Assembly (NCBI RefSeq): GCF_033472595.1
Contig: NZ_CP137642.1
Location: 124,001 to 188,000, forward strand
Source: Methanoculleus receptaculi
GTDB lineage: Archaea; Halobacteriota; Methanomicrobia; Methanomicrobiales; Methanoculleaceae
Length of the DNA: 64,000 nucleotides
Direction of reading: 5' to 3'
Part shown: in pieces, positions 21,951-37,741 of the stretch
Numbering within the stretch: position 1 is the stretch's first letter
Layout: each line of letters begins with the position of its first letter
Position numbers and translations under genes: made by a program
The notes under the pieces: model-generated
What the model saw: only the letters and a program-made list of their open reading frames with translations
Told to the model about the DNA's origin: nothing
Databases searched by the model: none

Positions 21951-21999
21951 AAGGTCATCACTCCGCTTTAAAAATAGTGCAGCCTAGAGATGCACCTGT

Positions 22000-22518: not shown

Positions 22519-22690
22519 TTTCTGTTTCCTCCATTATTACAGCACCGGAGGAGAGAGAACGTACCTATAAGTAAAGGTAATAACAACCCTCCTTTTGCCT
22601 CCGGGCATGCGGGGTCCATCATCCTGTAGTGAACCGCGGATGTGTGGCCCCGCGACTTATGCGAATGCCTGATGCCGGCATCCGCACTGC
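22519..22690 (-). promoter_or_regulatory. structured 5' leader, copy C
   Basis: On the minus strand this leader contains a hairpin at 22685-22661 (GCGGATGCC against GGCATTCGC with one G-U), GCGGGG (22653-22648) able to pair with CCCCGC (22614-22609), CATCC (22642-22638) able to pair with GGATG (22624-22620), a UGCC-CGGA-GGCA mini-hairpin and an ACTTA motif 38 bases after GCATGC. The start codon is 54 bases past ACTTA. The same layout occurs at 26.5 kb and 31.05 kb, so this is a candidate cis-regulatory RNA. Confidence 0.6.
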
Positions 22691-22705
22691 AACCTCAACG
22701 TCGGG

Positions 22706-22739
22706 CTATTTACCTTTTCTCTCACTTCTCTCTACATGT
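22706..22739 (-). promoter_or_regulatory. ACGTGTAG-BRE-TATA element, copy 2
   Basis: Minus strand: ACATGTAGAGAG, GAGAGAAAAGG, TAAATAG. The TATA-like box is about 25 bases past the core. It precedes leader C and the secreted-protein gene at 22518; the core to GCATGC distance is 129 bases, against 130 in the 26.5 kb copy. Confidence 0.55.
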
Positions 22740-22865
22740 TCGCTGTCTTCTTCGGAAAGCGGAAGGCTGGATACATCCTGCACGGCCCACGGAGCAGGAG
22801 AGGGTCCCGGCCGGAACCGGGAGTGCCGGGGCTCCATACTCGGTCCTGCTCCCCCCTGGGCGTGG

Positions 22866-23831
22866 TCACCGGATATCCATCCGCATGAACCTCGTGTACG
22901 CGACGGCGAAGAAGGCGACGGGATAGATGGTCAGGGCCGCAACGCTCGACCATATCTCGCCGAGCGTATCTTCAAGGGTTGCCCCTGGAGAGTTGCTGAT
23001 CCCCTGGATGAGGGCGTTGACGGCCATCTGCGGCGAGAGGAGGTTGACGGCACTCTCGATTACCTTCATCTGCTTGGAGTATGCCGCGATCTCCGCCTGG
23101 TAGCCTTCCGATTGGGTATCCCCGTCGTATGCAGCGGGGTCGGGTTCCTCCATCATGAGGGCCGTGCCGATATTCGCGGTGGCGAAGGGGACCAGGAAGA
23201 CGAGGAGGATGAAGACAACCACCGAAAGGAGCAGGGCGCTGCCGCTCTCCCGGCAGAGGGTGGAGAGGGCGAGCGCGATGGAGAAGAACGTCACGAGGAA
23301 GAGGAGGGTGACGCCGGCATAGGTCAGGATCATCCAGAGATCGCCGGGGGCGGGCACGATCGAGAAGACGAGGAGCAGCGCGGTGGAGATGGCGAGCACG
23401 CTCCCGACGACGAGGGCAAGCAGCGCAACGCCCCCGAGCGCCTTGCCGTTGATGATCTCGTCGCGGTAGACCGGGTGGGAGAGCAGGCTTTTGAGCGATC
23501 GGGACTCCTTCTCCCTGGAGACCCGGTCGAACCCGAGCGCAAGCGCAAGGAGGCCCCCGTAGGAGACCAGCGTCCGAAACATCGAGGAGTAAACGCCCTC
23601 GACCGGCGGTTTTGCGGGCATCATCATCCGCCCCGGTTCATCGAACCGGTCATCCATCGTCGCCAGTTGCTGGGCATACCTATCCAGGTCTCTCTCGTAG
23701 CTCCCGACCCCGCTGTAGGTTCCCACCAGGGCGATTGTGAGGAACAGGGCGAGGATCACCAGAAACCGCCAGCCCGTGATCTGGTCGGCAAACTCTTTTT
23801 TGGCCACGATGACGACCCGTTCCGCCGTCAT
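22866..23831 (-). CDS. ABC-2 type transporter permease (orphan)
   Basis: A 321-residue protein with six predicted helices and a large extracytoplasmic loop after the first helix. GFDRVSREKESRSLKSLLSHPVYRDEIINGKALG is the conserved cytoplasmic motif of ABC-2/NosY-type permeases. No ATPase gene lies next to it, so it must use a partner elsewhere or be a relic of a larger operon. Its start codon overlaps the stop of a 32-codon open frame (ATGA). An ACGTGTAG promoter element lies upstream at 24031-24064. The substrate is unknown. Confidence 0.8.
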   Translation of the reverse strand: MTAERVVIVAKKEFADQITGWRFLVILALFLTIALVGTYSGVGSYERDLDRYAQQLATMDDRFDEPGRMMMPAKPPVEGVYSSMFRTLVSYGGLLALALGFDRVSREKESRSLKSLLSHPVYRDEIINGKALGGVALLALVVGSVLAISTALLLVFSIVPAPGDLWMILTYAGVTLLFLVTFFSIALALSTLCRESGSALLLSVVVFILLVFLVPFATANIGTALMMEEPDPAAYDGDTQSEGYQAEIAAYSKQMKVIESAVNLLSPQMAVNALIQGISNSPGATLEDTLGEIWSSVAALTIYPVAFFAVAYTRFMRMDIR

Positions 23832-23926
23832 GCGTTATCACCGGTCAGTGTACATACATCTATCTTCATGCTCGTTCTCCGTCCGTGGTCGCAAGAGTAC
23901 CGCAGGCCCACGACAATACGCGGCAT
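23828..23926 (-). CDS. possible 32-residue leader peptide before the ABC permease
   Basis: A short frame beginning MPRIVVGLRYSCDHG ends with a TGA that overlaps the ATG of the permease gene. A TATA-like CACTTTAAGG is just 8-15 bases upstream of its ATG. The coupling geometry is the only support; no homology is recognised and it may be chance. Confidence 0.25.
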   Translation of the reverse strand: MPRIVVGLRYSCDHGRRTSMKIDVCTLTGDNA

Positions 23927-24030
23927 CGCCCCTTAAAGTGACAACCGAGGTTTTTCCGCCGCCCGGAACGGGCAAGGGTTACTCAGATGCACTTCCACGG
24001 GTGTTGCCGTCTTGAGACTGGATCGTTACT

Positions 24031-24064
24031 CCATATACCTTTTCTCTCACATTCCTCTACACGT
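24031..24064 (-). promoter_or_regulatory. ACGTGTAG-BRE-TATA element, copy 3
   Basis: Minus strand: ACGTGTAGAGG, GAGAGAAAAGG, TATATGG. It lies about 200 bases upstream of the ABC permease. Between them are a CCCG-UUCC-CGGG hairpin, an AACC-UC-GGUU hairpin and ACTTTAA, which resemble a diverged form of the structured leader of copies A-C. Confidence 0.5.
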
Positions 24065-24203
24065 CGTGGCGTGAGAGGAGTGGATCCGACCAGTGGCCGT
24101 GGTAAACTGACGATACTCTGCACCAGTCACTTTTCGGAAACTTCAAGCCCGGCCGGTCCCATACTGACTTTAACCACGCCGGTTCCATCGGCCCGGAACT
24201 ACC

Positions 24204-24896
24204 ATGAGACGACCGATCCTTGCCGTTATCGTCGGAGTAATAGCTGTCTACGCCTGCATGCACTTCTTCATCTTACCGGAGGCCCCGGACGTCACCCGTA
24301 TCGAGAATATCACCCATCTTGAGTCCCCGGCATACCATCCGGCCATCCTGGCTCTCTGGGAGATCGCCGTCGAGAGCACCGGCGTCGAGAACGAGTCGGC
24401 GAGACTGCTGCAACTTGAGGTCAATCTCGCCGAAGACGGAGCGATCCGGGTAATATGGCTCTACTTCTACGGGATGGAGGCTGGCGAGCAGCACGGCTAC
24501 GAGGCGTATGTGGGGCCGGGCGGAACGGTATCGGCTAAATCGCAGAAGTTCAATTTTTCCGTGCAGGGGGTGCACCCCCTCGAACTCTTGCGGGAGGTCG
24601 ACGCTATCGCCCTGGAAGATATTCCCTTCCGGGACCGGGGTATGAGGCTTCTTGTGAGCGTGAACGCGTACGGGGACCACTACAACGAGACCCGGGGAAG
24701 GCTCTACGAGGTCTCGAAGGGGGCGTTCATGCCGGTGAAAGAGGCGACGTTTGGTCCGGACGTATCCTGGTACACCATCACGATCATCCCGAACTCGGGT
24801 GCGGGGTCCCCGCCGTCCGGAGAAGAACTTCCGGACTGTATTATTGCGTTCACCCGGCAAGACCTCGCGGCGGCCGACTCTGTGATCTATGGATAG
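24204..24896 (+). CDS. membrane-anchored protein of unknown function
   Basis: A 230-residue protein with a single N-terminal hydrophobic segment (PILAVIVGVIAVYACMHFFIL) and an otherwise soluble domain, so probably anchored with the bulk outside. No recognised family. It has Asn-rich sequons (NITH, NFSV, NETR) fitting a glycosylated exported domain. It is followed by the convergent regulator gene at 24990. Codon use and ATG choice look normal. Confidence 0.65.
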   Translation: MRRPILAVIVGVIAVYACMHFFILPEAPDVTRIENITHLESPAYHPAILALWEIAVESTGVENESARLLQLEVNLAEDGAIRVIWLYFYGMEAGEQHGYEAYVGPGGTVSAKSQKFNFSVQGVHPLELLREVDAIALEDIPFRDRGMRLLVSVNAYGDHYNETRGRLYEVSKGAFMPVKEATFGPDVSWYTITIIPNSGAGSPPSGEELPDCIIAFTRQDLAAADSVIYG

Positions 24897-24989
24897 GTGG
24901 GCGTGCGAAACCGACAGAGCCGGGACTCGTTCACCGTCTCCAGCCCGGGCGCCCCCGGATTGTTCAGCCCACCCCTGGGTGACGAGGGT

Positions 24990-25736
24990 CTAGCCGGTTG
25001 CGTCCACGCTCCTGTCCGCCCTGGAATGCCGCACAACATCATGCCCGGGGAAGTATCGCACCATCCTTCCGTCCTTCTCGCTCCGGACGGCACCACTCTG
25101 GATGAGCAGCGCCATATGCCAAGTCACCGATGCACCGGTGATACCGAGCGCGGATGCGACTTCTTTTCGCATCATCCCCGGATTCCGGCCGAGAAGATCG
25201 AGCATTCTTTTTCTCGTCTCGTTGAGGGGATAGGCGCCTCTCTTGCCTTCGCGGGCCGCCCTGCTGTTTGTATAGTACCGCAAAAACCCGTGGTCGTTCT
25301 CCGATACTATCTGCCCCGTCTCGCAGAGGATCTCAATGTGGTACCGGAGCGTTCCAACGCTAACCCCCAGCCTGCGGGAGAGCGTAGCATGGTTGATTCC
25401 GGGGTTCTCCCGGATGCAGAGGTACGCCGCACGGCGAGTGTCGTGTTCGAGGGCATTCTTTCTGGAGATCCTCCTCTGACCGAGAACGAGCCATACGGAC
25501 ACCGATATGAGGAACTGCACCGGGAGGAAGAGCAGGGGTGCGGTCATGAAGACGAAGTCGAGCAGGATCAGTTTCAACGGTATATTCCAGACATACTCCA
25601 GGATCGGATCGTCCGGTACCATCTCTGGAAACTCACCCTCGCTCAGTATGGTGCTGGTGGCGCTCCCGGGGGTGATGAGCAACGTGAAGACGATGAGGAA
25701 CAGTGCGAACCTCGCGAGGGCGGGTTGGTTCACCAT
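24990..25736 (-). CDS. membrane-linked winged-helix transcriptional regulator
   Basis: A 248-residue protein with two N-terminal hydrophobic segments (residues about 8-25 and 55-83) and two winged helix-turn-helix units: IRENPGINHATLSRRLGVSVGTLRYHIEIL (about residues 110-140) and LLGRNPGMMRKEVASALGITGASVTWHMALL (about 185-215). This layout is common in methanogen regulators that sense at the membrane. The ATG at 25736 is preceded by a strong TATA box (TTTTTTATATTTA, about 20 bases upstream), so the message is nearly leaderless; upstream frame extension is rejected. It could control the surrounding secreted-protein genes through the repeated ACGTGTAG element (inference). Confidence 0.8.
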   Translation of the reverse strand: MVNQPALARFALFLIVFTLLITPGSATSTILSEGEFPEMVPDDPILEYVWNIPLKLILLDFVFMTAPLLFLPVQFLISVSVWLVLGQRRISRKNALEHDTRRAAYLCIRENPGINHATLSRRLGVSVGTLRYHIEILCETGQIVSENDHGFLRYYTNSRAAREGKRGAYPLNETRKRMLDLLGRNPGMMRKEVASALGITGASVTWHMALLIQSGAVRSEKDGRMVRYFPGHDVVRHSRADRSVDATG

Positions 25737-25776
25737 GAGGAGAATTAGACGGCCGTAAATATAAAAAAGATTTGAT

Positions 25777-26213
25777 TTATTCCGCCGCGGCTTCAAAGAA
25801 ATAACTCTGCGTATCCTGGACTTCTTCCCCATAAACCTGGAACCGCCACATCCCGGCCTCCGGAGAGGAGATCCGTGTGCGGATCTGCGCGTCTTTATCA
25901 CCATCCAGATCGGTGTCGTGATAGTAGGCGTAGGTGCTTCCGCTCGGCAAGATGATCTTCAGCGTCAACGACTGCTGGGAATGAACCAGTCCAGGTTCAC
26001 AAACAGCGTTGAACTCCCGGGAGGCACATTCGCGCTGTGATGGTTCGTCTCCCCCTGCTGTATAGAATAGAAGGCACAAATACCGGCGTCGCCTGTCGGG
26101 GCCTCTCCTCCCGGGGCGGTTTTCACGCTACATTCGCTGCTCCCGGCAAAAGCCGACGGCACCATCAGGACCGGTGCAAGCATCAGTGCAAAGAAGTGGT
26201 TGTATGTCATCAT
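25777..26213 (-). pseudogene. secreted protein with frameshift
   Basis: The first frame starts with a signal peptide (MMTYNHFFALMLAPVLMVPSAFA) and a Cys-containing domain to SSTLFVNLDW; the second carries on as SQQSLTLKIILPSGSTYAYY and ends at TQSYFFEAAAE. Together they form a beta-sandwich-like exported domain (FVNLDW...SLTLKIILPSG pattern seen in archaeal surface proteins). One frame shift near 25980 separates them; it could be a real mutation or a sequence error. The ATG at 26213 is about 30 bases past the TATA box of promoter copy 4. Confidence 0.6.
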
Positions 26214-26240
26214 ACTACGGGAGAACTTCTCAAATGCCTT

Positions 26241-26273
26241 CACTTAAGTTTTCTGTCGATCCTCTCTACACGT
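26241..26273 (-). promoter_or_regulatory. ACGTGTAG-BRE-TATA element, copy 4
   Basis: Minus strand: ACGTGTAGAGAGGATC, GACAGAAA, ACTTAAG. The expected transcription start (about 25 bases past the TATA-like box) falls at or next to the ATG of the secreted-protein gene at 26213. This geometry supports reading the element in this orientation as a promoter. Confidence 0.6.
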
Positions 26274-26445
26274 TCCCGGGTCCGGCGCAGACCAGTTTCC
26301 CGGTAGTCGGACCCGCGCGATATTTGAGAGGAGTGTGCGGGGCGGGTACCGGTGCCGCCCCTCCCTCCACTGCATGGGCTCCCCGTCGCTCGATACAGCA
26401 CAAATCCGGCACGCTTCTGGGACCAAAAGAGATCAAGCCGTCCCA

Positions 26446-26480
26446 ACGTGTAGAGAGGTTCGACAGAAATCGTTTATAGC
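26446..26480 (+). promoter_or_regulatory. ACGTGTAG-BRE-TATA element, copy 5
   Basis: Plus strand: ACGTGTAGAGAGGTTC, GACAGAAATCG, TTTATAG. It faces away from copy 4 and drives the phospholipase-like gene through structured leader A. The predicted start of transcription (about 26500) is at the foot of the first leader hairpin. Confidence 0.6.
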
Positions 26481-26499
26481 AGAACGTTGAGCTCTCAAT

Positions 26500-26666
26500 C
26501 GTGGGATACCGGAACCGGTATCCCGAAGCGCGGGGGTCCCTCCATCCACGGTTGACGCCCGGATGATAGAGCCCCGCATGCCCGGAGGCAAAGGGAACGT
26601 ACGCATTCCGTGTACTTAAAATGTGTGCCTCTTCTGTCCTCCGGGAAGGAATCGAGGAGAACAATC
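26500..26666 (+). promoter_or_regulatory. structured 5' leader, copy A
   Basis: It contains a perfect hairpin GGGATACCGG-AA-CCGGTATCCC (26503-26524), GCGGGG (26530-26535) able to pair with CCCCGC (26572-26577), CATCC (26543-26547) with GGATG (26561-26565), then UGCC-CGGA-GGCA and ACTTA at 26614, exactly 38 bases after GCATGC (26576). The ATG of the gene is 53 bases past ACTTA. Similar leaders are at 22.6 and 31.05 kb. The ACTTAAAA motif could also be a second TATA box. Confidence 0.6.
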
Positions 26667-27666
26667 ATGAATGAACTACGCAGGATTGGAAGAATATCCA
26701 TCCTCTTGGGAGTGCTGCTTTGTGTAGCACTTATATCGACAGCGAGCGCAGGGGAGGTTACTCTTGGAGCGTTCATTTCTGCAAGATGAGGCGGCGCTTG
26801 ATCATTACGCGCACCTATCCCCCGATGAGCAAACGATAGTGCTCAAAGCGTTAGAGGAGACATACTCAGAGAGCAAATTTGAGGAGACCACCGCAGAACT
26901 GAAGAAGATCAGGGATGGAACGTCAGCGCTGGAAGAGACAGAAAAGCGGGAACTACTGGCATCGGTAATCGCCAGTGTGTTTACCTACTATTGTCCGGAC
27001 ACTTCTCGTCAGATAAGCCCCATGTGGGGTGGTGCAATTGGTGAGAATCCTGACGGGGTTCACAATGCCCTTGCTGGGATTGCCGGGCAAAAGAGGGGCT
27101 GGGGATACTCACAGACAAAAATATTGGATGCAAACTCGAGAGACCCAGATACCTGGGGTCTTGTGCAGATGGTCGAGCACTATCTGGACGGTGCCCCATT
27201 CTTCAGCAACGCCCCGGATAAATGCAGTTATTACGCAAATGAAGCGAGGACCCAGATGAGGTCGAACCCCTATAGTGAGTCTGCCTGGCGGTGCCTATCC
27301 TGGTCGATGCATTATATGAGCGATCTGTCCATGCCGTGGCATACTCAGGGTGCAGCCGATCCGGCACAGCTGGCGACGCATACCCTTTATGAGGGATACG
27401 TGCAGGAAAAGTTCACCGATCCTGAGTATGGGTTTAAAGCGGCTCTTGTGTCGGCCCCTAATACCTGGGTCGTAATATCTGACCCCGCTTCGAGTGCGCG
27501 ATCTCTAGCATCCTACTCTTCAGCAAGGTATTCTGGACTTCAATTGAAGATTGTGACTATTCCTTTTGGGTGGGGAGAAGATGACTGGGTCAAGTCGACA
27601 ACCAAAGATCTCTTGAAAGAGGGTCTCAAGTATAACATGGGTCTCGTCGAGTACGCGACACACTAA
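26667..27666 (+). pseudogene. secreted zinc-dependent phospholipase C / P1-nuclease-like protein, frameshifted after signal peptide
   Basis: The ATG at 26667 encodes a signal peptide (ISILLGVLLCVALISTASA) in one frame that stops at 26788. The mature protein runs in another frame from about 26764: ERSFLQDEAALDHYAHLSPDE to the end. SMHYMSDLSMPWHTQG contains HxxxDxxxxxH-like zinc ligands (HYMSDLSMPWH) as in the zinc-dependent phospholipase C / S1-P1 nuclease fold. A single base change near 26760 breaks an otherwise complete 330-residue secreted protein. It may be a real loss, a sequence error, or on/off variation. It sits behind promoter copy 5 and leader A. Confidence 0.65.
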
Positions 27667-27685
27667 CCAAAACCTTTTTGGTGAA

Positions 27686-28369
27686 ATGATGAACGAGCAA
27701 CGTAAGAAAATCCGGAAAGCTATACTGATCGGGCTCGCCGCGGTCTGCATCCTCGCCCTGATGATCTTCCTCATCTTCCTTGCTGTTGGGTTCGTCGAGA
27801 TCATCTCACCGAATAACTCCTACGCGATCGAGATCACCGGCCTATCCAGTCTTGCCGTGAACGGCATCGCCACGGTCATGGTCCCGATCCCGGCGAATGT
27901 GGATGGTGTTCCGGCGATGTCGGAGGAGGTGCTTACTAGTCGTTATCAGGCCTTCGGATGGCAGACGGCGGTCCGGGAGACACCGTGTGGGAAGATGCTC
28001 GCGTTCACGACGACGGACGACTACGCGCCCGGTATCTCCGTATCGTCTGGTGAGTTCGAGAAGAAAGAAGAACCCCGGCTGCTCGTCCCTGTGCTTGCGA
28101 CGCCCGATAACATGAGCGTCGAAGAGTTCAGCCGAACATCGGGCGGGACCTACACCACGGTCGTCTTCCTCGACGGCTTCATCCCGCCGCCGGAGAACGC
28201 CACCCCGATCACGTTCAACCTCAGGTACCAGGGAGGCGGAGGCATGAAACACCTGATAAAGGAGAATGTCTGGACGGCGACGGTGAATGCGACCGTTCCG
28301 GGCACAGCATCCGGGTTCATCCCGGTCCCGGCCGAATATCATGTCACTCCCGGGGGGCTTTATCTTTGA
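27686..28369 (+). CDS. membrane-anchored protein of unknown function
   Basis: A 227-residue protein with one strong N-terminal helix (ILIGLAAVCILALMIFLIFLAVGFVEII) and an external beta-rich domain with sequons (NNSY, NMSV). No family is recognised. ATG at 27686 or 27689. It is followed directly by the META-domain protein (11 bases), so the two probably share a message. Confidence 0.65.
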   Translation: MMNEQRKKIRKAILIGLAAVCILALMIFLIFLAVGFVEIISPNNSYAIEITGLSSLAVNGIATVMVPIPANVDGVPAMSEEVLTSRYQAFGWQTAVRETPCGKMLAFTTTDDYAPGISVSSGEFEKKEEPRLLVPVLATPDNMSVEEFSRTSGGTYTTVVFLDGFIPPPENATPITFNLRYQGGGGMKHLIKENVWTATVNATVPGTASGFIPVPAEYHVTPGGLYL

Positions 28370-28380
28370 CGGGCGAACCC

Positions 28381-29574
28381 ATGCGAAAGAACTCCCGGCG
28401 GGCCGTGAGGGTCGCTCTCGCCGGACTGCTTGTATTCGTCGTCTGCCTGGGAGTTCTCGTTTTCACGCACTCTGCAGGGGCCCGGGACGATACTCGATTG
28501 CCGCCGGACGGAAACCCATCGTTGCCGGCGAATGATAATCAATCCCCGCTATCCGGGCGGTCATGGCATCTTACCTCCTATTGGACGGAGGAAGGAGCCG
28601 TCCCCGTCATCGAGAAAACGGACCCAATCATCGCGTTCACCGACGCCGGGCGGGTCAGCGGCACCTCCGGGTGCAACATCTTCTTCGGCGGCTATGGCCT
28701 CTCCGGCAGCAGGCTCAGGATCCACGAGATAGAATCGACAAAGATGACCTCGACCCCTGAGGTGCTCGACCAAGAGAAAGCGTTCTTCGCACTGCTCATG
28801 GAAACGGAGACCTACACAATAGACGGTGACTGCCTCCGGTTGTTCGATGCATCCGGAAGGGAGATCCTCTCCTTCACCAGTCAGACACAACCGCTCCAGG
28901 GAAAAGCGTGGTATCTCTGGTCCCCGCGGAACGATACGGGAGGGGCCGTTCAGGACCCGGGTACCGACCTGATTTCATTGCAGTTTCTGGATGAAAGCCA
29001 GTTCCGGGGGACCGCCGCGGGCACCGATTACTGCGGGACGTATGAAGCGCCCGGGGATACCATCCGGTTCGGGCCGGTGGAGGGGTGGGCTGAATTGCCC
29101 GAATGGTACTCATCGCTCCTGAAACAGGCGCACGGTTACCGGATAACCGGGGCTCAACTCGATATCAGGAACGAGAACGGTCACTCCATCATGTCGTTTA
29201 CCCGGATGCCCCCTTCACTGGTCTCGGCCGACTGGTATCCGCAACAGTACCGGGCGGCGGATGGATCCGTCCTCCTGCCGCCAGAGGAGACGTTCGAAAT
29301 GGTATACTTTACCCCGGATGGCAACGTCTTTGGAACCATCCGCGGAATCCAGTTCACCGCGCAGTATGACGCAGACAACTCATCGATATCGTTTGGTCCC
29401 GTATCCCTGCTAATCCCGGAAAGCGACGATCCCGGAAAAGCGAGTGAATCACGGGAGATGATCGAGTCGATATTCCGGGAGGCAAGAACATACCTGGTCC
29501 AGAACGGCACGCTGGAACTCTCTTCCGGCGACGGGAAACCCCTGGTGACGATGGCGAACATGCCTGCGGTATAA
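28381..29574 (+). CDS. secreted protein with three META (HslJ-like) repeats
   Basis: A 397-residue protein: an N-terminal helix (VALAGLLVFVVCLGVLVFTHSAG) then three META-type domains. The first (about residues 55-165) has SWHLTSY, TSGCNIFFGGY and STKMTS, the classic META pattern. The second (about 170-285) begins GKAWYLW and retains GTDYCGTYEA; the third (about 290-395) begins SADWYPQQ and is the most changed. META domains are small beta folds in heat-inducible and surface proteins. I use the ATG at 28381 rather than an overlapping TTG. Three units in one protein is unusual. Confidence 0.75.
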   Translation: MRKNSRRAVRVALAGLLVFVVCLGVLVFTHSAGARDDTRLPPDGNPSLPANDNQSPLSGRSWHLTSYWTEEGAVPVIEKTDPIIAFTDAGRVSGTSGCNIFFGGYGLSGSRLRIHEIESTKMTSTPEVLDQEKAFFALLMETETYTIDGDCLRLFDASGREILSFTSQTQPLQGKAWYLWSPRNDTGGAVQDPGTDLISLQFLDESQFRGTAAGTDYCGTYEAPGDTIRFGPVEGWAELPEWYSSLLKQAHGYRITGAQLDIRNENGHSIMSFTRMPPSLVSADWYPQQYRAADGSVLLPPEETFEMVYFTPDGNVFGTIRGIQFTAQYDADNSSISFGPVSLLIPESDDPGKASESREMIESIFREARTYLVQNGTLELSSGDGKPLVTMANMPAV

Positions 29575-29714
29575 GCGGGGTGCCGTCCGGGGACCCCGGC
29601 GACCCTATGAATCTGGGCGGTACAGGAATCTGGAGCAGAATACGCCAACAAAGGTGAATGGAAATAGGACGGGCCTATCTCAGCGGGATTGGGTGAAATC
29701 ACAGAGGAGATCTC

Positions 29715-30164
29715 ATGAAATCGAAAAACAACAAACATTTGCTCATTATGGGGGCTCTTGCGTTCATCGGCGTTATCCTCTTCGTTGCGACGGTCGTGCT
29801 CGGGTATACCGCCTTCTTCGCCTGGCTCGAAGCAAGCGGTGGATCCCCGATATTGGACGTCTGGGAGATCAGGGACGAACTGCCGCCGGAAAATGCATCG
29901 ATCATCCACCTGACCGAGAAAGACTTTGAGCAGCACCCGGCGCTCGACTCCGCGATCCGGGGCGACAACCGGGATCCTGGAGCCTGGTATCAGGGGGACA
30001 CACCGTACGGTGTCCTCGACAAGCGAACGATCGGGAGTGCTCCGGTGACGTATGTGGAACGGGGAGTACTTATCGAGTCGTTCGGTCCCGATGTCGAGGC
30101 AAGGTACCAGCCGTACCTAGAATACGAGGGTGCGTATTACTACTTCCTCACCCTGATCCCCTAG
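29715..30164 (+). CDS. membrane-anchored protein, tandem paralogue 1
   Basis: A 149-residue protein with an N-terminal helix (LLIMGALAFIGVILFVATVVLGYTAFFAW) and a soluble external domain. It is clearly related to the next gene: HLTEKDFEQHPALDSAIRGDNRDPGAW against PLTEKDFADHPALDAVIRGEERNPSAW, and both end YEGAYYYFLTLIP or YEGAYYVVLTTWP. GGAGA lies just before the ATG (cagaGGAGAtctc). Function unknown; the pair is a recent tandem duplication. Confidence 0.72.
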   Translation: MKSKNNKHLLIMGALAFIGVILFVATVVLGYTAFFAWLEASGGSPILDVWEIRDELPPENASIIHLTEKDFEQHPALDSAIRGDNRDPGAWYQGDTPYGVLDKRTIGSAPVTYVERGVLIESFGPDVEARYQPYLEYEGAYYYFLTLIP

Positions 30165-30191
30165 GGTCGTGTCAAAAAGGTGGCTATCGGA

Positions 30192-30638
30192 ATGGAAGAA
30201 GATAAGAATCCGAAATCAAGGAACCAGCTCAAAACGGCAGGAATCGTTCTCGCCTGCGGCCTCGTCGGTGTCGTTGCCGTCGTCCTCGGCTTCATGCTCG
30301 CCGACGCCCTCATCGTCTATGCTTACGAGAGTTCAGGCGAGCAGCCGATGCTCTATGTCATGGAACGTGCGGAGCCGGGGGAGAGCACGATCGTCCCCCT
30401 GACCGAGAAGGACTTTGCCGATCACCCGGCGCTCGATGCGGTCATCCGGGGCGAGGAACGGAACCCCTCAGCGTGGGAGTGGGGCTACCGGGACCAGCGT
30501 GTCATTGGGGGAACTAAGGTCTCGTACCGGGAGAGCAAGGCGCTCCACGATGCCTACGGTCCCCAGGGGGAGAGGGGACTGTACCCGCTCATGGAGTACG
30601 AGGGTGCGTATTACGTGGTCCTGACGACGTGGCCGTGA
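30192..30638 (+). CDS. membrane-anchored protein, tandem paralogue 2
   Basis: A 148-residue paralogue of the preceding gene, with helix AGIVLACGLVGVVAVVLGFMLADALIVYAY after a charged N-terminus (MEEDKNPKSRNQ). The shared core is LTEKDF..HPALD..IRG..R.P.AW and the shared tail YEGAYY. ATG at 30192 chosen because a GTG/ATC run before it lacks a ribosome site. Only 27 bases separate the two genes, so they are likely co-transcribed. Confidence 0.72.
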   Translation: MEEDKNPKSRNQLKTAGIVLACGLVGVVAVVLGFMLADALIVYAYESSGEQPMLYVMERAEPGESTIVPLTEKDFADHPALDAVIRGEERNPSAWEWGYRDQRVIGGTKVSYRESKALHDAYGPQGERGLYPLMEYEGAYYVVLTTWP

Positions 30639-31162
30639 AGGGGAGTCACCGTCGCCCGTGCTCGATATGCATCGCCTCTTTCCACGGGGGAGGCAAGTCG
30701 GAGGGAGTGAACTGAACCACAACATCAGTCTGGGCGTCACCGCCTGGCCTCGGGCCACCCTATCCAGCTATTATCCAGCCTTAGAGGCCGACTGCGGGAA
30801 AATCCCGGGAGGTATCATCCTCCCCCCTCAGCGAAGAAAAGGTTTGGGTTTTTCTGTTCCGAACCGATTCTCCAGAGATCGGGTGAGTGCATCCTTTCGG
30901 GCACACCCCCGGCGGGGACGGGGGCACACTGCCGTGCGATCGCCCCACAATGAGATGGTTTAAGATGATTTCGGAAAAAACCGAACGATGCTGCTGATTT
31001 TATATGTTCTAACGACCCAGAATTGGATTGGGTGCCGCGTGCGGTGCCCGCTCGTGTGCGGGGGCTGCCCACCCCCTGGTCTGACGCCCGGATGACGCGC
31101 CCCGCATGCCCGGAGGCAAAGGAAACGTAGGCGTTCTGTGCACTTAGATGTGTGATTCTTCA
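30639..31162 (+). promoter_or_regulatory. non-coding gap holding structured leader, copy B (about 31027-31162)
   Basis: Between 30639 and 31020 I see no gene. A palindrome TTCGG-AAAAAA-CCGAA (30970-30985) precedes a TATA box (TTTATATG, 30998-31005). The leader follows: hairpin GGGTGCCG-CGTG-CGGTGCCC (31030-31049, two G-U wobbles), GCGGGG (31058-31063) with CCCCGC (31100-31105), GCATGC at 31104 and ACTTA at 31142, again 38 bases apart. It shares a 75-base near-identical block with leader A (around 31082-31155 and 26554-26627). No secreted-protein gene follows at the expected distance. Confidence 0.55.
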
Positions 31163-31267
31163 ATGGATTCAAGCGACGATGCCTGGATGACGTTTGATGA
31201 GGTAAAGAGCGAGGGTGGGTGCACAGAGGCCTTTTGTTCAGCCTGTGGGGCGGCGGCATGCCTATAG
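31163..31267 (+). CDS. possible 34-residue ORF after leader B
   Basis: A short frame MDSSDDAWMTFDEVKSEGG ending with a Cys-rich tail (TEAFCSACGAAACL), 17 bases past the ACTTA motif of leader B. No ribosome site and no homology. It may be a small protein or the remnant of the gene the leader once served. Confidence 0.2.
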   Translation: MDSSDDAWMTFDEVKSEGGCTEAFCSACGAAACL

Positions 31268-31445
31268 GAGGAGATAGGCCTTATGGTGATCACAGCGTTG
31301 CCTGTGTAGGTTATCTATACGGAGGACTGGGTGTCCATACATGACACATGGGATACTCAGATCCATAACGTAGTCTATAGTAACCGGTGGGGTGCCATGG
31401 CGACCTGGGTGAGGCCCTGACCCCTCTTTATGGTGGTAGATCCAG

Positions 31446-32234
31446 ATGAAATCCCTGAAAACCGATAGAACCAGCAAATTCGCATTCATTCTCCTCCTGA
31501 TCGCTATCGGTGCTTTCGGTATCCTCCTGCTCATTGACCTCCTCGCCATCGGTCCTGGGTATCCTCCCCCTGAGGCCCTGCAGAAATGGTATATCCCGCA
31601 GCCCCGGTATGAGTATGCGGAGAACGGCTCTGTCGCCGTAAATAGAACGATCGATGGGAATGTTGTCCTGCTCGGCGATATCGAAGACGGGTGTCCATCC
31701 TTATTCCCGGTCCTCTCACGGCACTGCAGCTATGCAATGTATGTCGACACCGTGTCGGGTGATCGGTATCTGGTCGTCAACTGGTACTTCGATGATAAGG
31801 CAGACCTCTTACAGGCTGAGATGGTCCTCTGCAGCCACCTCCGAGCATCTGGGAATGTCTCTTCCGCTGAGCTGTTCCTCTCCAAAGAACCTGATTTATC
31901 ACAGGGGGAACCGATCTTTAGTCCCGTTGCCGTAACAAAATTCGATAACGAAACGTCTTTTGGTTATTTCACCGTTGTTGAGAAGCCGCTGTCCCCGGAG
32001 CACGACGATTACTTCGTTGTTTACTATGGGGTGATCGGGCCGGCTATTCTCCCTGATCACACTGCTACCCTGGAGAATCTTATGCTCCGGAGTTATTCGC
32101 TTCATGGTGCAAGGCCGCTCGCACCCTGCTCGGCACAGGAAGCGGCAACAGGGTCTACGCATTCCGTGTGCGAAGGCATGCCCCTCTCGCCCCGGGCAGC
32201 GAAATCTCCCGGGATAGTACATAGGAGGTCTTAA
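31446..32234 (+). CDS. membrane-anchored protein of unknown function
   Basis: A 262-residue protein with an N-terminal helix (FAFILLLIAIGAFGILLLIDLLAI) followed by a soluble domain with sequons (NGSV, NRTI, NVSS, NETS). No family is recognised. The last 50 or so residues (after YSLHGARP) are unlike the rest and look low in constraint, so the true protein may have been longer or differently ended. The following gene begins 1 base past its stop and has a good ribosome site. Confidence 0.6.
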   Translation: MKSLKTDRTSKFAFILLLIAIGAFGILLLIDLLAIGPGYPPPEALQKWYIPQPRYEYAENGSVAVNRTIDGNVVLLGDIEDGCPSLFPVLSRHCSYAMYVDTVSGDRYLVVNWYFDDKADLLQAEMVLCSHLRASGNVSSAELFLSKEPDLSQGEPIFSPVAVTKFDNETSFGYFTVVEKPLSPEHDDYFVVYYGVIGPAILPDHTATLENLMLRSYSLHGARPLAPCSAQEAATGSTHSVCEGMPLSPRAAKSPGIVHRRS

Positions 32235-32235
32235 A

Positions 32236-32967
32236 ATGCCACGAAAGATCGGTGCACTCGTCTGTCTCGCTCTCGCGATCATAGCCAGGTGCGCATGGGT
32301 TCTTGGTCAGGGCCAGACCCCGGCGAATCCTCTTCCCGCCGTGGCGGGCGCAGGTGAAGGTACATACTCTCTCGCCACAGAGTTCCCGGAAGTGCAGGAT
32401 TCGTATACGCTTTACCGGGTGGTTCCGGTCACCATCACGGAGGATCGGGTCCGGGAGATTGCAGAGTGGTTCGGGCTCTCGGGAGAATCGAAAGCGGTCA
32501 GCGAGGTGACCGGGGAGTTCCTCCTTGTCGACGTCTCGAAGGAGCCGGAGGAGCAGGTATCGGTGTATGCACATTCCGGCGCCGTGGCCTACCACATCCT
32601 TGACCTGGAACTGCCGACCGAAGTGACCCAGCAGCCCGATCTCCCAACGAACGCGGAGGCAGAGAAGATTGCTCTTGCATTCCTGGAGAAAAACGGCATG
32701 AAGTCGCCGGACGCCCGGGTCGTGAAGACCGAGGTGAACCAGAAGCAGGAGGTCTGGAAATCCGGCGGCAGCGAACCGGAGGTGTCGTATGACATCACCA
32801 AGGCAGTCAGGTTCGGCCGGTCGCTCGACGGGCTGCCGGTCTACGGCGATGAATTCGCGGCGATCCTGGGCGACGGCGGTGAGGTCGTCGGACTCGCGAA
32901 GACCTGGCGGGAGGTGGCACCGGATGGGAATGTCAGCCTCCGGTCTCCCGAGGAGGGGAAGCAGTGA
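32236..32967 (+). CDS. secreted protein of unknown function
   Basis: A 243-residue protein with a signal-like N-terminus (IGALVCLALAIIARCAWVLGQ) and a Glu-rich soluble part. TAGGAGGT lies 8 bases before the ATG. The region TITEDRVREIAEWFGLSGE and the C-terminal VRFGRSLDGLPVYGDEFAAILGDGGEVVGL suggest two alpha-beta repeat units like those of PepSY/YpeB-type secreted domains, but I cannot name the family. It is probably co-transcribed with the preceding gene. Confidence 0.65.
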   Translation: MPRKIGALVCLALAIIARCAWVLGQGQTPANPLPAVAGAGEGTYSLATEFPEVQDSYTLYRVVPVTITEDRVREIAEWFGLSGESKAVSEVTGEFLLVDVSKEPEEQVSVYAHSGAVAYHILDLELPTEVTQQPDLPTNAEAEKIALAFLEKNGMKSPDARVVKTEVNQKQEVWKSGGSEPEVSYDITKAVRFGRSLDGLPVYGDEFAAILGDGGEVVGLAKTWREVAPDGNVSLRSPEEGKQ

Positions 32968-33043
32968 GATCCGCCCTTCTTCCCCGGTTTTTAAAGGCCC
33001 ATAGGAGAAATCTGCCCGCGGATGCGCCATCCGGAGCACATGC

Positions 33044-33181
33044 ATGACCGAATTCGGCTTTACTCAGGCGGTTCGTGTGACCCTGGAGACCGTAGTTTCC
33101 CTGGGTCCGGTCTATCTCTTCCTTATCGCCACATTTGCCGTTGTTTTCTTTCTCTGGTACGCCTGGCCCCGCCTCCGGTAA
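33044..33181 (+). CDS. 45-residue single-helix membrane protein
   Basis: A small frame starting MTEFGFTQAVRVTLETVVS with one strong helix (VYLFLIATFAVVFFLWYAW) and a basic end (PRLR). No clear ribosome site, though a plausible initiation distance from the preceding transcript. It fills most of the gap before the 33208 gene. Support is from composition and hydropathy only. Confidence 0.4.
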   Translation: MTEFGFTQAVRVTLETVVSLGPVYLFLIATFAVVFFLWYAWPRLR

Positions 33182-33207
33182 CCAAAACGAGCAGAGGGGT
33201 AGAGAAC

Positions 33208-34155
33208 ATGGGAAAAAGAATCGGAATGCGAGCTCTCTCTATACTCTTGGCAGTAATGCTGGTGAGCGTGGTGGTGCCTGCAGTGAGTGCCTGGACGGAA
33301 AACGATCCGATCTGTATCGAAGATCAAGCCAAAGTCCAGGGATTATTCGAACCTGTCGACGAAGACATCCGTGTGATTGCCGCAGAGAATTTGGTGGTAT
33401 CCGATCGTGCGAGTTCAGTGAGATGTTCTGAATTGTTATCGGAAATCATGGAGAAATATGACCAAAACCTTGAGGACATTATCTCCATTCTGGAGAAGGC
33501 CACAGATGTTCAACCTGACGAGAAGGACCGAACCGTTCTGAAGGAAGTGATTGTCGGTGAGCATTTCAGACGAGTGTGCGACGAAATACTGATGGAACAG
33601 CGTGATCTTCGGGAGGAGGACGCTGTGATCGTCCAGCCGCAGATCCTTGGTGTTGCGGATTGTCAGGAAGATATGGATAAGATGCTAGCAGGAACAGACC
33701 GGTGGGATACCTTCATCCTGGCCCAGTGCTCGCCGGATGTGTACGGCGGAATCGGACTTGACGGTGCAAACCTACCTTACTTGGTAAATGGAGGCAATAA
33801 CCTCTATGAAGTGGGTGTCTGGCCTGGCAGCCCGACCACATATCAGCTGCGCTATTATGACGAGGATCACCCGAGCCCGGTGACGGATATCGAGTATGAC
33901 GCTTTTAGGCTTTTATACTACGGGACCCTTGAAGACCGTGCCCTGTTTGATGTCACGGGCTCCCAGATCTACTTCAGGTATTGTTGGAATGATGGTTACA
34001 CGTATGCCTGGCTCTATGGAATTCATGGGTATCAGTACAGGCCCAAGACCTCCGTGATCTACACCAGCAATATCTGGAACCATGATATCGACACTTACAA
34101 CAGCAACCCGAATATCGGGCAGCTTGTCATGTCGGTGCCCTACATTCAACAGTAA
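33208..34155 (+). CDS. secreted protein of unknown function
   Basis: A 315-residue protein with a signal peptide (ALSILLAVMLVSVVVPAVSAW, cleavage after VSA). Residues about 35-150 are helical and acidic; the C-terminal half is aromatic and beta-rich (YDAFRLLYYGTLEDRALFDVTG, YAWLYGIHGYQYRP). Six or more cysteines in the mature part may form disulfides. GAGGGGT precedes the ATG at 33208, which fixes the start. No family is recognised. Confidence 0.72.
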   Translation: MGKRIGMRALSILLAVMLVSVVVPAVSAWTENDPICIEDQAKVQGLFEPVDEDIRVIAAENLVVSDRASSVRCSELLSEIMEKYDQNLEDIISILEKATDVQPDEKDRTVLKEVIVGEHFRRVCDEILMEQRDLREEDAVIVQPQILGVADCQEDMDKMLAGTDRWDTFILAQCSPDVYGGIGLDGANLPYLVNGGNNLYEVGVWPGSPTTYQLRYYDEDHPSPVTDIEYDAFRLLYYGTLEDRALFDVTGSQIYFRYCWNDGYTYAWLYGIHGYQYRPKTSVIYTSNIWNHDIDTYNSNPNIGQLVMSVPYIQQ

Positions 34156-34205
34156 CCTCTTTTTTAATTCGAGTAAATGAGAAATTGGGAAAACAGGCTG
34201 TAATC

Positions 34206-35345
34206 ATGGAGACCACAACCTTTCACTACCCCCGAAGAAGTGCAAAATATGTAATACTCATTCTTCTTTTAGCGTTAACCATACCGTTCTTTGCTGGATG
34301 CACTGATAGGGGGCATAGAGACCTCACTCTGGACACATGGATCCTCAAGACCAATTCGGACGGATCCCTCCAGTGGACTGCGTTCGTCGACGGCGACCCG
34401 AACGGCAGAGGGCAGGCGATGATTCAGACCCGCGACGGCGGGTACGCAATCACGGGCACGGGAACGAACGCCGATGTGAACGGCCCGGTCCCCCGCATCG
34501 TTACTCTCGACAGAGACGGGAATGTCATATCAACCATGACCTTCGGTATGTCGCCGGATTACGGCAGCTCGCTGGTCGAGGCACCGGGCGGCGGATACGT
34601 CGTTGCCACGTATTCTGGGTTTCTAACACGGGTGGATGAAGATGGGAACGTCCTCTGGAGTACGTCGCTCGGCGGCGGGAGCGACTGGTGGAAGGTCGTC
34701 GGGGCGCCGGGCGGCGGGTATGCTGTAGCCGGGGATACCAGGATCGTCAAGGTAGGCGAGGACGGGGAGATCGCATGGACTGCAGCGTTTGAAACCGGCC
34801 TAAACGTTGGTACGATCGCTGCGATACCCTCGGGAGGTTTCATCGCAGGAGGGACCACCGGAGCGGATGTATGGGTCGCAAGACTCGATGCAGAGGGAAA
34901 TACCGTCTGGGATGAGACGCTCGGGAGCCGGTCGCGCGATGACCTCTACGTTGTCCGCATCTCCCCTGCCGGGACCTACGATCTCGTCTATGGCACCGTC
35001 CTTGATGCAAGAAATGAAACTGCTGACGGGCGATTTACGGAGACGATCGAAGCCTCTCTTGCCGCGGACGGCAGGCTGATCGGGGAAAGACCATTGAATG
35101 CCTCCCGGGTCATCGTCGCGACGGAGGACGGCGGATATGCATATGCCGGTTTTATCGTTCCCGAGTTTATCGGACTCCAGCCGCAGGGCTATCCGGGATC
35201 CCCCCTTCACGTTGTCAGGCTCGATGACGAGGGAATGGTCGCATGGGATGCATCGTACGACATCGGAGATGATAGATCGGTTGTCTCGATCATCCGGACG
35301 TCGGACGATGGGGTTGCAGTCCTCGGGAGTGTATATGATTTCTGA
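34206..35345 (+). CDS. secreted beta-propeller lipoprotein-like protein
   Basis: A 379-residue protein with an N-terminal lipobox-like sequence (LALTIPFFAGC) and then six or so repeats of about 45 residues of the form DGGYAITGTG / PGGGYVVATYSG / DGNVLWSTSLGG, the blade pattern of archaeal and bacterial PQQ/WD40-like propellers that read WxLKxxxDGxxxW. It is likely lipid-anchored outside the cell, binding or sensing. The last blade ends early (VLGSVYDF), so the C-terminus may be shortened. A 5' fragment of a paralogue follows at 35400. Confidence 0.78.
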   Translation: METTTFHYPRRSAKYVILILLLALTIPFFAGCTDRGHRDLTLDTWILKTNSDGSLQWTAFVDGDPNGRGQAMIQTRDGGYAITGTGTNADVNGPVPRIVTLDRDGNVISTMTFGMSPDYGSSLVEAPGGGYVVATYSGFLTRVDEDGNVLWSTSLGGGSDWWKVVGAPGGGYAVAGDTRIVKVGEDGEIAWTAAFETGLNVGTIAAIPSGGFIAGGTTGADVWVARLDAEGNTVWDETLGSRSRDDLYVVRISPAGTYDLVYGTVLDARNETADGRFTETIEASLAADGRLIGERPLNASRVIVATEDGGYAYAGFIVPEFIGLQPQGYPGSPLHVVRLDDEGMVAWDASYDIGDDRSVVSIIRTSDDGVAVLGSVYDF

Positions 35346-35399
35346 GCGCTTTATATTCCATACTACACCTTTTTACAACCCATCGAGGAGCATGATTCG

Positions 35400-35582
35400 A
35401 TGAAAACAGCTCAGGGGATAATCCGGACCTTGGAAGTGGTTGCCGCGCTCATCCTGCTAACCGTCGCCGCCGGATGCTTCGATCGGCCGCTGACCCCAGG
35501 CCATCGCACGCTGGAGGGGGACGTCTGGGTGCTGAAACTGGACGATGCCGGGGACCATGCAGGATCGGGTAGGGTATCTTAA
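35400..35582 (+). pseudogene. truncated paralogue of the propeller lipoprotein
   Basis: 60 residues only: a signal/lipobox (VVAALILLTVAAGCFDRP) followed by GDVWVLKLDDAGDHAG, which is the first propeller strand of the preceding gene (DTWILKTNSDGSLQW). The frame then stops. The remainder is missing, so this is a 5' stub from a deleted tandem duplicate. Confidence 0.65.
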
Positions 35583-35707
35583 CCGCACCCGGTCAACCTG
35601 AATGCCTGTAACCCGGGTGCCCCGGCCTTGCGGTCGCTGAAAAAGGCGTCCGGGGAAAGAGATCTCCGGCGAGAGTGATTCTCCCTCGCCTGCCCATGCA
35701 GTGCGTG

Positions 35708-35973
35708 GTAACGCGCGCGCGGAACAACAACGCTTAAGAGCAACCGTACGAGAGTTACCACCCAAGATGCGCGATCAGTTCAAAGGCTGCTGCCTCCTCG
35801 AGGCCGCCATCGGGGATGTGCTCGGCATGCGCGGGAGAGCACCCTTCCCGACCTCCAGCGCCTCCAGGAAAGATACCGGCGGACGTGGCGGCGGGGCGAG
35901 GCCGAAAACGCGAGGACGTCTATGGTCATACATGATGTGTTGTCCCGGCGGAGGCAAAAAACGTGCCGGGACT
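35708..35973 (+). pseudogene. mosaic pseudogene: ADP-ribosylglycohydrolase 5' end joined to flavoprotein upstream segment
   Basis: From about 35708 to 35895 the sequence follows 14117-14295 (upstream flank plus start of the ADP-ribosylglycohydrolase): ATGCGCGATCAGTTCAAAGG against ATGCTCGACCAGTTCAGGGG, with GCCATCGG-GA-GTGCTCGG against GCCATCGGTGACGCGCTCGG. From 35884 to 35973 it is 89/90 identical to 20823-20912. The join lies in a shared GTGGCG run. Frame and function are lost. Confidence 0.8.
35884..35973. repeat. 90-bp segment duplicated from 20823-20912
   Basis: Second copy of the block described at 20823-20912, in the same orientation, with one base difference. Near-identity against strong divergence of the adjoining glycohydrolase part shows that the two halves of the mosaic have different ages. 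Confidence 0.9.
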
Positions 35974-36159
35974 CTTCTCACCCCGGAACCCTCTTTCCTG
36001 CGTGAGCGCGGACGGCGGGATGCGAGAACCGTCGCGGAAATCCCGGGGGTGACAGAGAAAGAGGAGTTGAGAGGATGGAGGAGTCACCTCGAAAAGGTGG
36101 CGCTCGAAGAAAACTCAAAACAGGTCGTGTAAAACGCCCTATTTCGGCAACCACGGCAA

Positions 36160-36434
36160 ATAACGGGGCTGAGCCTGGTGGGTTTTCTGTCTCGATATAG
36201 ACCTGGACGAATGCTACAAAAAACTACATGATGCCCTTTGGGCCACAAGCATACCCTATTAAAATAGTCGGGTGGCCATTTCTCCTGGGGTAGTGAAGGC
36301 TGACCCCTTTTTGGGACCTGAGCCCGTGCAAAAAACTAACCCAGCCATCGTTTCGGAAGCATACCTGCATCAGCGAATGCGTATACGAAAACGCTCCTGA
36401 AGCGTTTTGGAGCTACCCCATCTCGTGAGGTATT
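36160..36434 (+). ncRNA. candidate bridge RNA region of the IS110 element
   Basis: The 270 bases before the transposase are non-coding. They contain a GGCT..CCCC-TTTTT-GGG..AGCC stem-loop (about 36289-36318) and a perfect AAAACGCT-CCTGA-AGCGTTTT hairpin (36388-36408). IS110-group elements carry a long non-coding left end that encodes the bridge RNA guiding target and donor recognition, and a very short right end, the same asymmetry seen here (about 20 bases after the stop). Exact ends and guide loops are not determined. Confidence 0.4.
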
Positions 36435-37718
36435 ATGAAGGAACCAACCATAGCATGTGGAATCGATGTTCACAAGATGTTTCTCCAGGTCTGCATTCTC
36501 TCACGATCTGGAGAAGCCTCTCAGCATCGCTTCCACAACACTCTCAATGGGATTCTGGCACTAAAAGACCTTGTGCTTGCTGAAGGGTGTGAGATCGTTG
36601 CCATGGAATCGACCGGGATCTACTGGTATCGACTCTTCCTGGAACTCGAGTCAGATATTCGAACGATTGTTGCCAACGCGCGTCAGATCAAGAGTATCCC
36701 AGGACGCAAGACAGACATGAACGATGCCCGATGGATTGCCGAACTCGCTCTCCACGGGTTGATCCGGCCCTCCCGGATCTTTCCCCGGCGCGATCGTGAG
36801 TTCCGGGATCTGACCCGCAACCGGGAGACACTGGTCAGAACCCGGACAACCATCAAGAACCGGATTCATAAGATCCTGGATAGCGCGGGTATCCGCCTGA
36901 ACCTGGCGCTCAAAGATCTTTTCGGGAAATCAGGTCGTCATCTCCTCTCAGGTCTTGCCGAACAGAAGGACCTGGAGACCACCCTCGCGACTATCCCCTC
37001 GCCCCGGATCCTCCGCCGTGCCGATCAACTCCGGGAGATCCTCCAGGGTAGCCCACTCTCCCCCATCCAGTTGCATCTCCTTACGACCCAGTTGCATCTG
37101 CTTGAGGAGATCGAGGAGAAGATCGCTCATCTGGATGAGTTGATCCTTGCCTCGCTCGAGGATCCCCAGCTGGAGGCAGTCGCGATCTGTACCTCGGTGC
37201 CGGGGATCAGCATCACCGCAGCAACAACAATTCTCGCAGAACTGGGTGATGTCCGGGATTTCTCCACCGCGAGTCGTCTGGTTTCTTGGGCTGGGTTGGC
37301 ACCGTCGGTCTATCAATCTGCTGATACCCAGGTGTGCGGCAAGATCACGAAACAGGGGTCAAAGAGTCTCCGCTGGATCCTGGTGCAGGCGGCCCAGGCG
37401 GCCAGCCGGACTACAGGTACTGTCTTCTCCTCCTTCTTCCGGCGGATCGCCTACCGCCGAGGGAGGAATAAGGCAATTGTTGCTCTCGCCCGGAAGATCC
37501 TCAGTATCCTGTGGCATCTCCTGGTGAACCGGGAATCCTACGTCGAACCGGGACTCAAGAGGGTGCGGAAACTCCCGGCGCGCATGACCCTGCCGAAGAT
37601 CTCGATTGATGATGCCGTCGAAACCCTGTTGAGGGCGGGGTACCGAATTTACTCGCCTGAGAACCAAAAGTCAACCGCTGAGGGGGTGAGAGCGGAGAGG
37701 GCCACCCACCCCCTTTGA
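36435..37718 (+). CDS. IS110-family transposase (bridge-RNA-guided recombinase)
   Basis: A 427-residue DEDD recombinase. The RuvC-like domain has D11 (CGIDVHK), E58 (AMESTGIYW), D94 and D97 (RKTDMNDARW). After a coiled stretch, the C-terminal Tnp domain shows VPGISITAATTILAELGD, DFSTASRLVSWAGLAPS, and YQSAD, with a candidate catalytic serine. Length is within the family range and no frame breaks are seen, so it may be active. It sits between the mosaic pseudogene and the peroxiredoxin gene; the transposase stop is only 23 bases from the next gene's end. Confidence 0.93.
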   Translation: MKEPTIACGIDVHKMFLQVCILSRSGEASQHRFHNTLNGILALKDLVLAEGCEIVAMESTGIYWYRLFLELESDIRTIVANARQIKSIPGRKTDMNDARWIAELALHGLIRPSRIFPRRDREFRDLTRNRETLVRTRTTIKNRIHKILDSAGIRLNLALKDLFGKSGRHLLSGLAEQKDLETTLATIPSPRILRRADQLREILQGSPLSPIQLHLLTTQLHLLEEIEEKIAHLDELILASLEDPQLEAVAICTSVPGISITAATTILAELGDVRDFSTASRLVSWAGLAPSVYQSADTQVCGKITKQGSKSLRWILVQAAQAASRTTGTVFSSFFRRIAYRRGRNKAIVALARKILSILWHLLVNRESYVEPGLKRVRKLPARMTLPKISIDDAVETLLRAGYRIYSPENQKSTAEGVRAERATHPL

Positions 37719-37741
37719 CATTTTCATACGAAAGTGGGTTT

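What the first reader, a model, noticed from the sequence alone, without database searches (positions are those of the whole stretch)
35708..35973. Mosaic pseudogene assembled from two loci in this window
The left part resembles 14117-14295 (start of ADP-ribosylglycohydrolase) with many changes, while the right part is 89/90 identical to 20823-20912 (start and flank of a flavoprotein gene). The join is in a short shared GTGGCG run. Different divergence on the two sides implies an old duplicate later overwritten at a microhomology, by gene conversion or template switching. It sits a few hundred bases from an IS110 element.
Basis: seen in the sequence. Interest (0 to 1): 0.52.

Follow-up and report, generated by a model that had tools for sequence, protein, structure and literature searches.

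The report
Edge of a 15-kb DNA insertion
What looked like a pseudogene stitched together from two nearby genes is most likely the right-hand edge of a 15-kb block of DNA from related species that recombined into the start of a gene in this methane-producing archaeon; the kind of event is ordinary, but its breakpoints can be read unusually well.

Summary
35884-35973 is 89/90 identical to 20823-20912, and 35764-35866 is 79% identical to 14172-14272. The origin is different from the one proposed. The sister genome G002 has no insert: its flavoprotein start runs straight into the sequence that lies right of the mosaic here (35974-36060) and on into the same IS110. The 15 kb between the two 90-bp copies is therefore an insertion flanked by direct repeats. 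Native-type sequence (91% to G002, 82% to G020) stops at 20806. Both 90-bp copies are foreign-type (95-96% to G020, 82% to G002). Native type resumes at 35974. In six relatives examined the insert's genes lie just upstream of the ADP-ribosylglycohydrolase gene, so the ADPRH stub is the insert's own neighbour, not a copy of the local gene (88% to relatives, 69% to own). The unequal divergence thus compares a foreign allele with a native gene on the left, and two copies of one foreign stretch on the right. Best model: single-crossover integration with about 100 bp of conversion. The exact route and donor are unproven, and the insert is itself a mosaic. Known kind of event; modest interest.

The parts
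14124..20909 (+). Native block: ADPRH gene (14151-15086, +), arginine-biosynthesis genes, two FMN-reductase-like flavoprotein genes (-)
   Evidence: 89.5% to G002 in one alignment, next to the mrp genes as in G002; about 76-90% in 250-bp steps to seven other species; Pfam ADP_ribosyl_GH and FMN_red
20257..20868 (-). Flavoprotein gene, intact; body native-type, first codons and upstream foreign-type
   Evidence: 20257-20806: 502/550 to G002, 452/550 to G020; 20809-20912: 85/103 to G002, 99/104 to G020
20823..20912 (.). Left copy of the 90-bp direct repeat (flavoprotein start and upstream), at the left edge of the insert
20913..21049 (-). Remnant of the 3' end of a BCCT transporter gene, which lies next to the flavoprotein gene in relatives
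   Evidence: 113/117 to G020/G031/G033/G004/G027 over 20913-21030, nested in that clade (99/98 support); Pfam BCCT for the full gene in G020
21028..35556 (.). Inserted variable region of secreted and membrane protein genes, mosaic, 85-99% to G020/G033/G006 in 500-bp steps where those match
35541..35894 (+). Foreign-type ADPRH stub: upstream region and about 45 codons, with indels that shift the frame
   Evidence: 78-79% to G020/G006/G027 over 35541-35894; 88% to G020/G024 and 69% to own ADPRH over 35722-35890; indels
35884..35973 (.). Right copy of the 90-bp direct repeat; foreign-type
   Evidence: 86/90 to G020, 73/89 to G002; 23 of 26 informative sites foreign-type
35974..36213 (.). Native upstream flank of the flavoprotein gene (right-hand side of the insertion site)
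   Evidence: 35974-36060: 73/86 to G002, 57/85 to G020; aligned with G002 up to the IS110 end
36214..37733 (+). IS110 element, transposase 36435-37718; older than the insertion
   Evidence: 99.3% over 1520 bp to a second copy in this genome; Pfam DEDD_Tnp_IS110 and Transposase_20; at the same place in G002 at 95%

Best explanation
35708-35973 is the right-hand boundary of a roughly 15-kb segment (about 20809-35973) that recombined into the 5' end of a flavoprotein gene. The segment came from other species of the same genus and carries a variable gene region plus the stub of the ADPRH gene that follows that region in relatives. Integration left the flavoprotein gene whole and its 5' end duplicated as 90-bp direct repeats. 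Shown: the empty site in the sister genome, the native/foreign/native switches, and the foreign affinity of both edges. Inferred: that the segment arrived with ADPRH already fused to the flavoprotein start, probably as a circle joined at 21028-21049 (BCCT end to start of the variable region), and that one crossover with about 100 bp of associated conversion made both repeat copies foreign-type.
For: Empty site: on one contig G002 has mrp genes (6394-13670), block 14124-20909, then 35886-36008 and IS110 36218-37741, without the 15 kb; 35974-36082 aligns with G002. Switch points: of 34 informative sites from 20600 to 20806, 21 are native-type, 9 foreign-type and 4 neither; from 20809 to 20912, 25 of 29 are foreign-type; on the right copy 23 of 26 are foreign-type; from 35974 to 35995, 6 of 9 are native-type (tallied by hand from its printout). 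Identities agree. The left flank 20913-21030 nests in the G020 clade. Native genes are 80-86% to relatives, the insert 85-99% in the 500-bp steps that match. The ADPRH stub fits relatives better than the own gene, and in G020, G006, G033, G030, G024 and G032 parts of the same variable region lie upstream of ADPRH. Junction unique: in a search of 100 genomes (G000 and 99 relatives) only G000 has a match across it.
Against: The insert is not uniform: 29.0-30.5, 32-33 and 35.0-35.9 kb are only 83-90% to the best of the seven relatives compared, and 29711-31117 is 90% to G002, so part of it may be native or from other donors. The ADPRH stub is more diverged from its nearest relatives (20/165) than the right repeat and BCCT remnant are (8/207; Fisher p 0.005), so it may be older. 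A tree that joins the stub with the own ADPRH is not rejected (p-AU 0.42). No genome searched holds either the ADPRH-flavoprotein junction (100 genomes) or the BCCT-variable-region junction (35 genomes) besides G000. G002 is a metagenome-assembled genome whose other IS110 flank differs. 9 of 34 sites left of 20807 look foreign-type.
Confidence: 0.75

Rival explanations
1. One reading: an old ADPRH duplicate in this genome, later overwritten on its right side by a 90-bp copy from 20823-20912 through gene conversion or template switching.
For: 89/90 against 69-79%. The right copy shares two sites with G002, at 35905 and 35931, against the G020-clade consensus, as the left copy does, so the two copies have a common recent source. 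Gene conversion in the polyploid haloarchaeon Haloferax volcanii is described in PMC8223754 (search listing and start of abstract seen).
Against: The left arm is not closest to the own ADPRH. The sequence right of the tract is the native flank of the flavoprotein gene itself, not unrelated DNA that was overwritten. The whole 15 kb between the copies is absent at this site in G002.
Confidence: 0.1
2. Homology-facilitated illegitimate recombination (a variant of the best explanation, same insertion by another route): linear foreign DNA paired by homology at the flavoprotein start on one side and was joined at the CGTGGCGG microhomology on the other, with later conversion between the two 90-bp copies.
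For: Homologous switch at 20806-20809 and microhomology join at 35884; the process is a named one in the literature (search listing only).
Against: It needs an extra conversion to make the right copy foreign-type from 35885 to 35973, and does not explain the BCCT-variable-region join at 21028-21049, which no searched relative has.
Confidence: 0.25
3. Tandem duplication and partial loss within this lineage: variable region plus ADPRH-flavoprotein block was doubled, then one half of each copy was lost.
For: The order of the stubs matches the order in relatives: variable region, ADPRH start, flavoprotein start.
Against: The flank 20809-21049 is foreign-type, the stub is 69% to the own gene, and sister G002 has no trace of a second copy at this site.
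Confidence: 0.07
4. Chimeric assembly of the window.
For: Reads were not available.
Against: The genome is one contig, 99.76% complete; the stub carries frame-shifting indels and private changes that a misjoin would not give; the right side continues as a diverged native flank.
Confidence: 0.03

Closest known systems
Single-crossover (Campbell-type) integration with associated gene conversion (general knowledge)
   Same: Insert flanked by direct repeats of the shared homology; target gene kept whole; native-foreign and foreign-native switch points
   Different: No plasmid, integrase or circle seen; both repeat copies are foreign-type, which needs a conversion tract of about 100 bp; the circle is inferred
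Homology-facilitated illegitimate recombination
   Same: Homology at one edge, microhomology at the other edge
   Different: Right-hand repeat would have to be converted afterwards; second join at 21028-21049 unexplained
Intermolecular gene conversion in polyploid archaea (PMC8223754, listing only)
   Same: Would make the two copies alike over the length of their homology
   Different: There, between copies of the chromosome; here between two sites 15 kb apart; ploidy of this organism not tested
IS110-family transposition
   Same: An IS110 lies 240 bp to the right
   Different: IS110 is at the same place in G002 and lies outside both repeats

Membership tests
Insertion by homologous recombination | Empty site in a close relative | tested here: met
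   G002 contig C3
Insertion by homologous recombination | Direct repeats at both edges | tested here: met
   20823-20912 and 35884-35973, 89/90
Insertion by homologous recombination | Switch from native to foreign type at each edge | tested here: met
Insertion by homologous recombination | Uniform foreign ancestry of the insert (expected for one donor, not strictly defining) | tested here: not met
   85-99% in patches, 29711-31117 90% to G002
Campbell-type integration of a circle | Same crossover point in both repeat copies | tested here: not met
   Left switch 20806-20809, right switch at the equivalent of 20912; a conversion tract must be assumed
Campbell-type integration of a circle | A circular donor molecule | not testable with these tools
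   Neither junction seen besides G000 (100 genomes; 35 genomes)
Copy assembled from two loci of this window (reader) | Left arm derives from the ADPRH gene at 14.1 kb | tested here: inconclusive
   69% to own, 88% to relatives, but p-AU 0.42 for stub with own gene
IS110-borne event | Breakpoints at IS110 ends | tested here: not met
   IS110 36214-37733 lies right of both repeats and is present in G002

The most novel reading that the evidence does not exclude
A circular DNA molecule excised from another Methanoculleus-like species, already carrying a deletion scar between ADPRH and the flavoprotein gene, entered this lineage and integrated by one crossover at the flavoprotein start, leaving a readable conversion tract of about 100 bp: a route by which secreted-protein regions move between methanogen species without any integrase.
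Probability: 0.35. Interest if true: 0.45.

Novelty: new member of a known kind. Interest (0 to 1): 0.3.

Why it matters
It shows how a mosaic 'pseudogene' can be only the edge of a much larger import, and gives base-level breakpoints for transfer of a variable, secreted-protein-rich region between methanogen species. It also warns that comparing two sides of a junction with copies in the same genome can mislead about age when one side is foreign.

Tried and rejected
Rejected: local copying from two loci, because relatives and G002 explain both arms better. Rejected: IS110 as the cause. Weakened: tandem duplication and loss.

Led nowhere: plasmid collection (no match); an exact 41-base pattern across the junction in genome contigs (0 matches; records of the own genome may be left out there); weak matches of 36011-36213 to the inside of BCCT genes (p 0.02-0.03), which I dropped after the better alignment to G002. 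An early test that 35974-36010 is related to the flavoprotein flank of relatives was positive (p 0.003 for the best of 14 rows and 0.007 for the sum; six of 31 rows had been dropped for lack of the anchor motif, and ten of the 24 rows scored were left out of its shuffle test) and is superseded by G002. Searching for the names of relatives gave 80 loci of the 120 found; only L136, L137 and L138 were compared with the G handles.

Full report
What was checked. The two similarities of the finding are real: 35884-35973 equals 20823-20912 at 89 of 90 positions, and 35764-35866 is 79% identical to 14172-14272. The 90-bp piece was found at just these two places in the 1,980,381-base genome. The genome is archaeal; the nearest named records of the flavoprotein gene are Methanoculleus. 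G002, G006 and G030 could be matched, over the stretches compared, to records titled Methanoculleus sp. isolate Yes49-05, Methanoculleus sp. FWC-SCC3 and Methanoculleus sediminis S3Fa.

Gene order in relatives. In a search of 100 genomes (G000 and 99 relatives) with 35640-36130, the left arm and the right arm match different places. Of 34 other same-genus genomes, 22 have both on one contig 6-13 kb apart in one orientation, 1 (G022) has them 168 kb apart on opposite strands, 5 have them on different contigs, and 6 have one of the two (counted by hand from its table). No genome but G000 has a match across the junction. In G020, G006, G033, G030, G024 and G032 the order is: parts of the variable region matching 26.5-35.6 kb of the window, then ADPRH, arginine genes, flavoprotein genes, then the genes matching 37.7-44.3 kb. 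Between flavoprotein and peroxiredoxin genes, G020 has a BCCT transporter gene. So the ADPRH stub sits where expected if it came along with the variable region.

The empty site. G002 is the sister among those compared: 89% over the mrp genes and the ADPRH-flavoprotein block, in that same order. On the same contig its flavoprotein start is followed directly by sequence that matches 35974-36060 and then by IS110. Nothing of 20913-35883 lies between. Parts of the variable region occur in G002 on another contig (29711-31117 at 90%). IS110 therefore predates the insertion. The far flank of this IS110 in G002 differs from the window and matches G000 at 633-638 kb, while the window's genes at 37.7-42.8 kb lie at the edge of another G002 contig. 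That may be a misjoin at IS110 in a metagenome assembly or a real rearrangement; it does not touch the left side.

Where the type switches. Identity to G002 / G020: 20257-20806, 502/550 and 452/550; 20809-20912, 85/103 and 99/104; 35884-35973, 73/89 and 86/90; 35974-36060, 73/86 and 57/85. Site by site the left copy turns foreign between 20806 and 20809, and the right copy turns native at 35974. Left of 20807 the sites are mixed (21 native, 9 foreign, 4 neither of 34), as expected if G002 has private changes (inference). 20913-21030 groups with G020, G031, G033, G004, G006 and G027 (support 99/98). Native regions: 15112-18600 is 84-86% and 37742-40667 80-83% to six relatives that are 87-97% among themselves. 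The insert is 85-99% to G020, G033 or G006 in the 500-bp steps that match, in patches.

The left arm. Over 35722-35890 the stub is 145/165 identical to G020 and to G024 and 114/165 to the own ADPRH; the own gene is the long branch, 0.48-0.53 against 0.21 for the stub. A relative-rate argument (inference): an unconstrained stub that had split from the own gene within this lineage should not be less changed than the working gene. But the AU test does not reject stub plus own gene (p 0.42), so the tree alone does not decide. Eight of 165 stub letters are seen in no relative (28 rows), against 0 of 90 for the right repeat (29 rows) (Fisher p 0.053). Against nearest relatives the stub differs at 20/165, the repeat and BCCT remnant together at 8/207 (p 0.005). 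The stub may thus be older or from a donor not sampled.

Why the two sides differ. On the left the finding compared a foreign allele with the native gene; on the right it compared two copies of one foreign stretch. No old duplicate and no late overwriting is needed.

How it may have worked. Both copies of the 90 bp are foreign-type, so a plain single crossover is not enough: a conversion tract of about 100 bp must be added (inference), or the incoming DNA had the stretch at both ends. The join at 21028-21049 of BCCT end and start of the variable region lies in a shared imperfect run and is found in none of the 34 other same-genus genomes as one match. With it, the incoming DNA could have been a circle (inference). 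Further small joins at short shared runs are seen at 21073-21076 and 35541-35556, a sign of repeated small deletions (inference). The alternative, homology on one side and microhomology on the other, remains open at about one in four.

Literature. I saw only search listings and starts of abstracts: PMC8223754 and PMC11276520 on gene conversion in Haloferax volcanii, PMC4632066 on gene conversion in methanogens; papers naming homology-facilitated illegitimate recombination; a listing for Methanoculleus with transfer and recombination. None was read; I make no claim that this event is unreported.

Verdict. A real, well-readable edge of an inter-species insertion; ordinary in kind.

Noticed in passing
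26530-26647, 30944-31161, and inverted 22590-22740: An interspersed repeat of about 120-200 bp inside the insert, with many copies in the variable regions of relatives.
   Followed up: no
36217-36266 and 36285-36334: Short pieces of the IS110 left end recur at 80-86% identity at seven other places of this genome (loci L005-L011); a tblastn with the transposase found nothing in those 3-kb loci. They might be relics or a shared RNA-coding end.
   Followed up: partly
L112 1-4400 and L120: In G002 the right flank of this IS110 is different from the window's and matches G000 at 633-638 kb: misjoin or IS110-linked rearrangement.
   Followed up: partly
35400-35582: A truncated lipoprotein-like ORF whose first part matches G024, G020 and G032 upstream of ADPRH, cut at a short shared run at 35541-35556.
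   Followed up: partly
G022 contig C8: ADPRH and flavoprotein starts lie 168 kb apart on opposite strands, unlike the other same-genus genomes with both on one contig.
   Followed up: no
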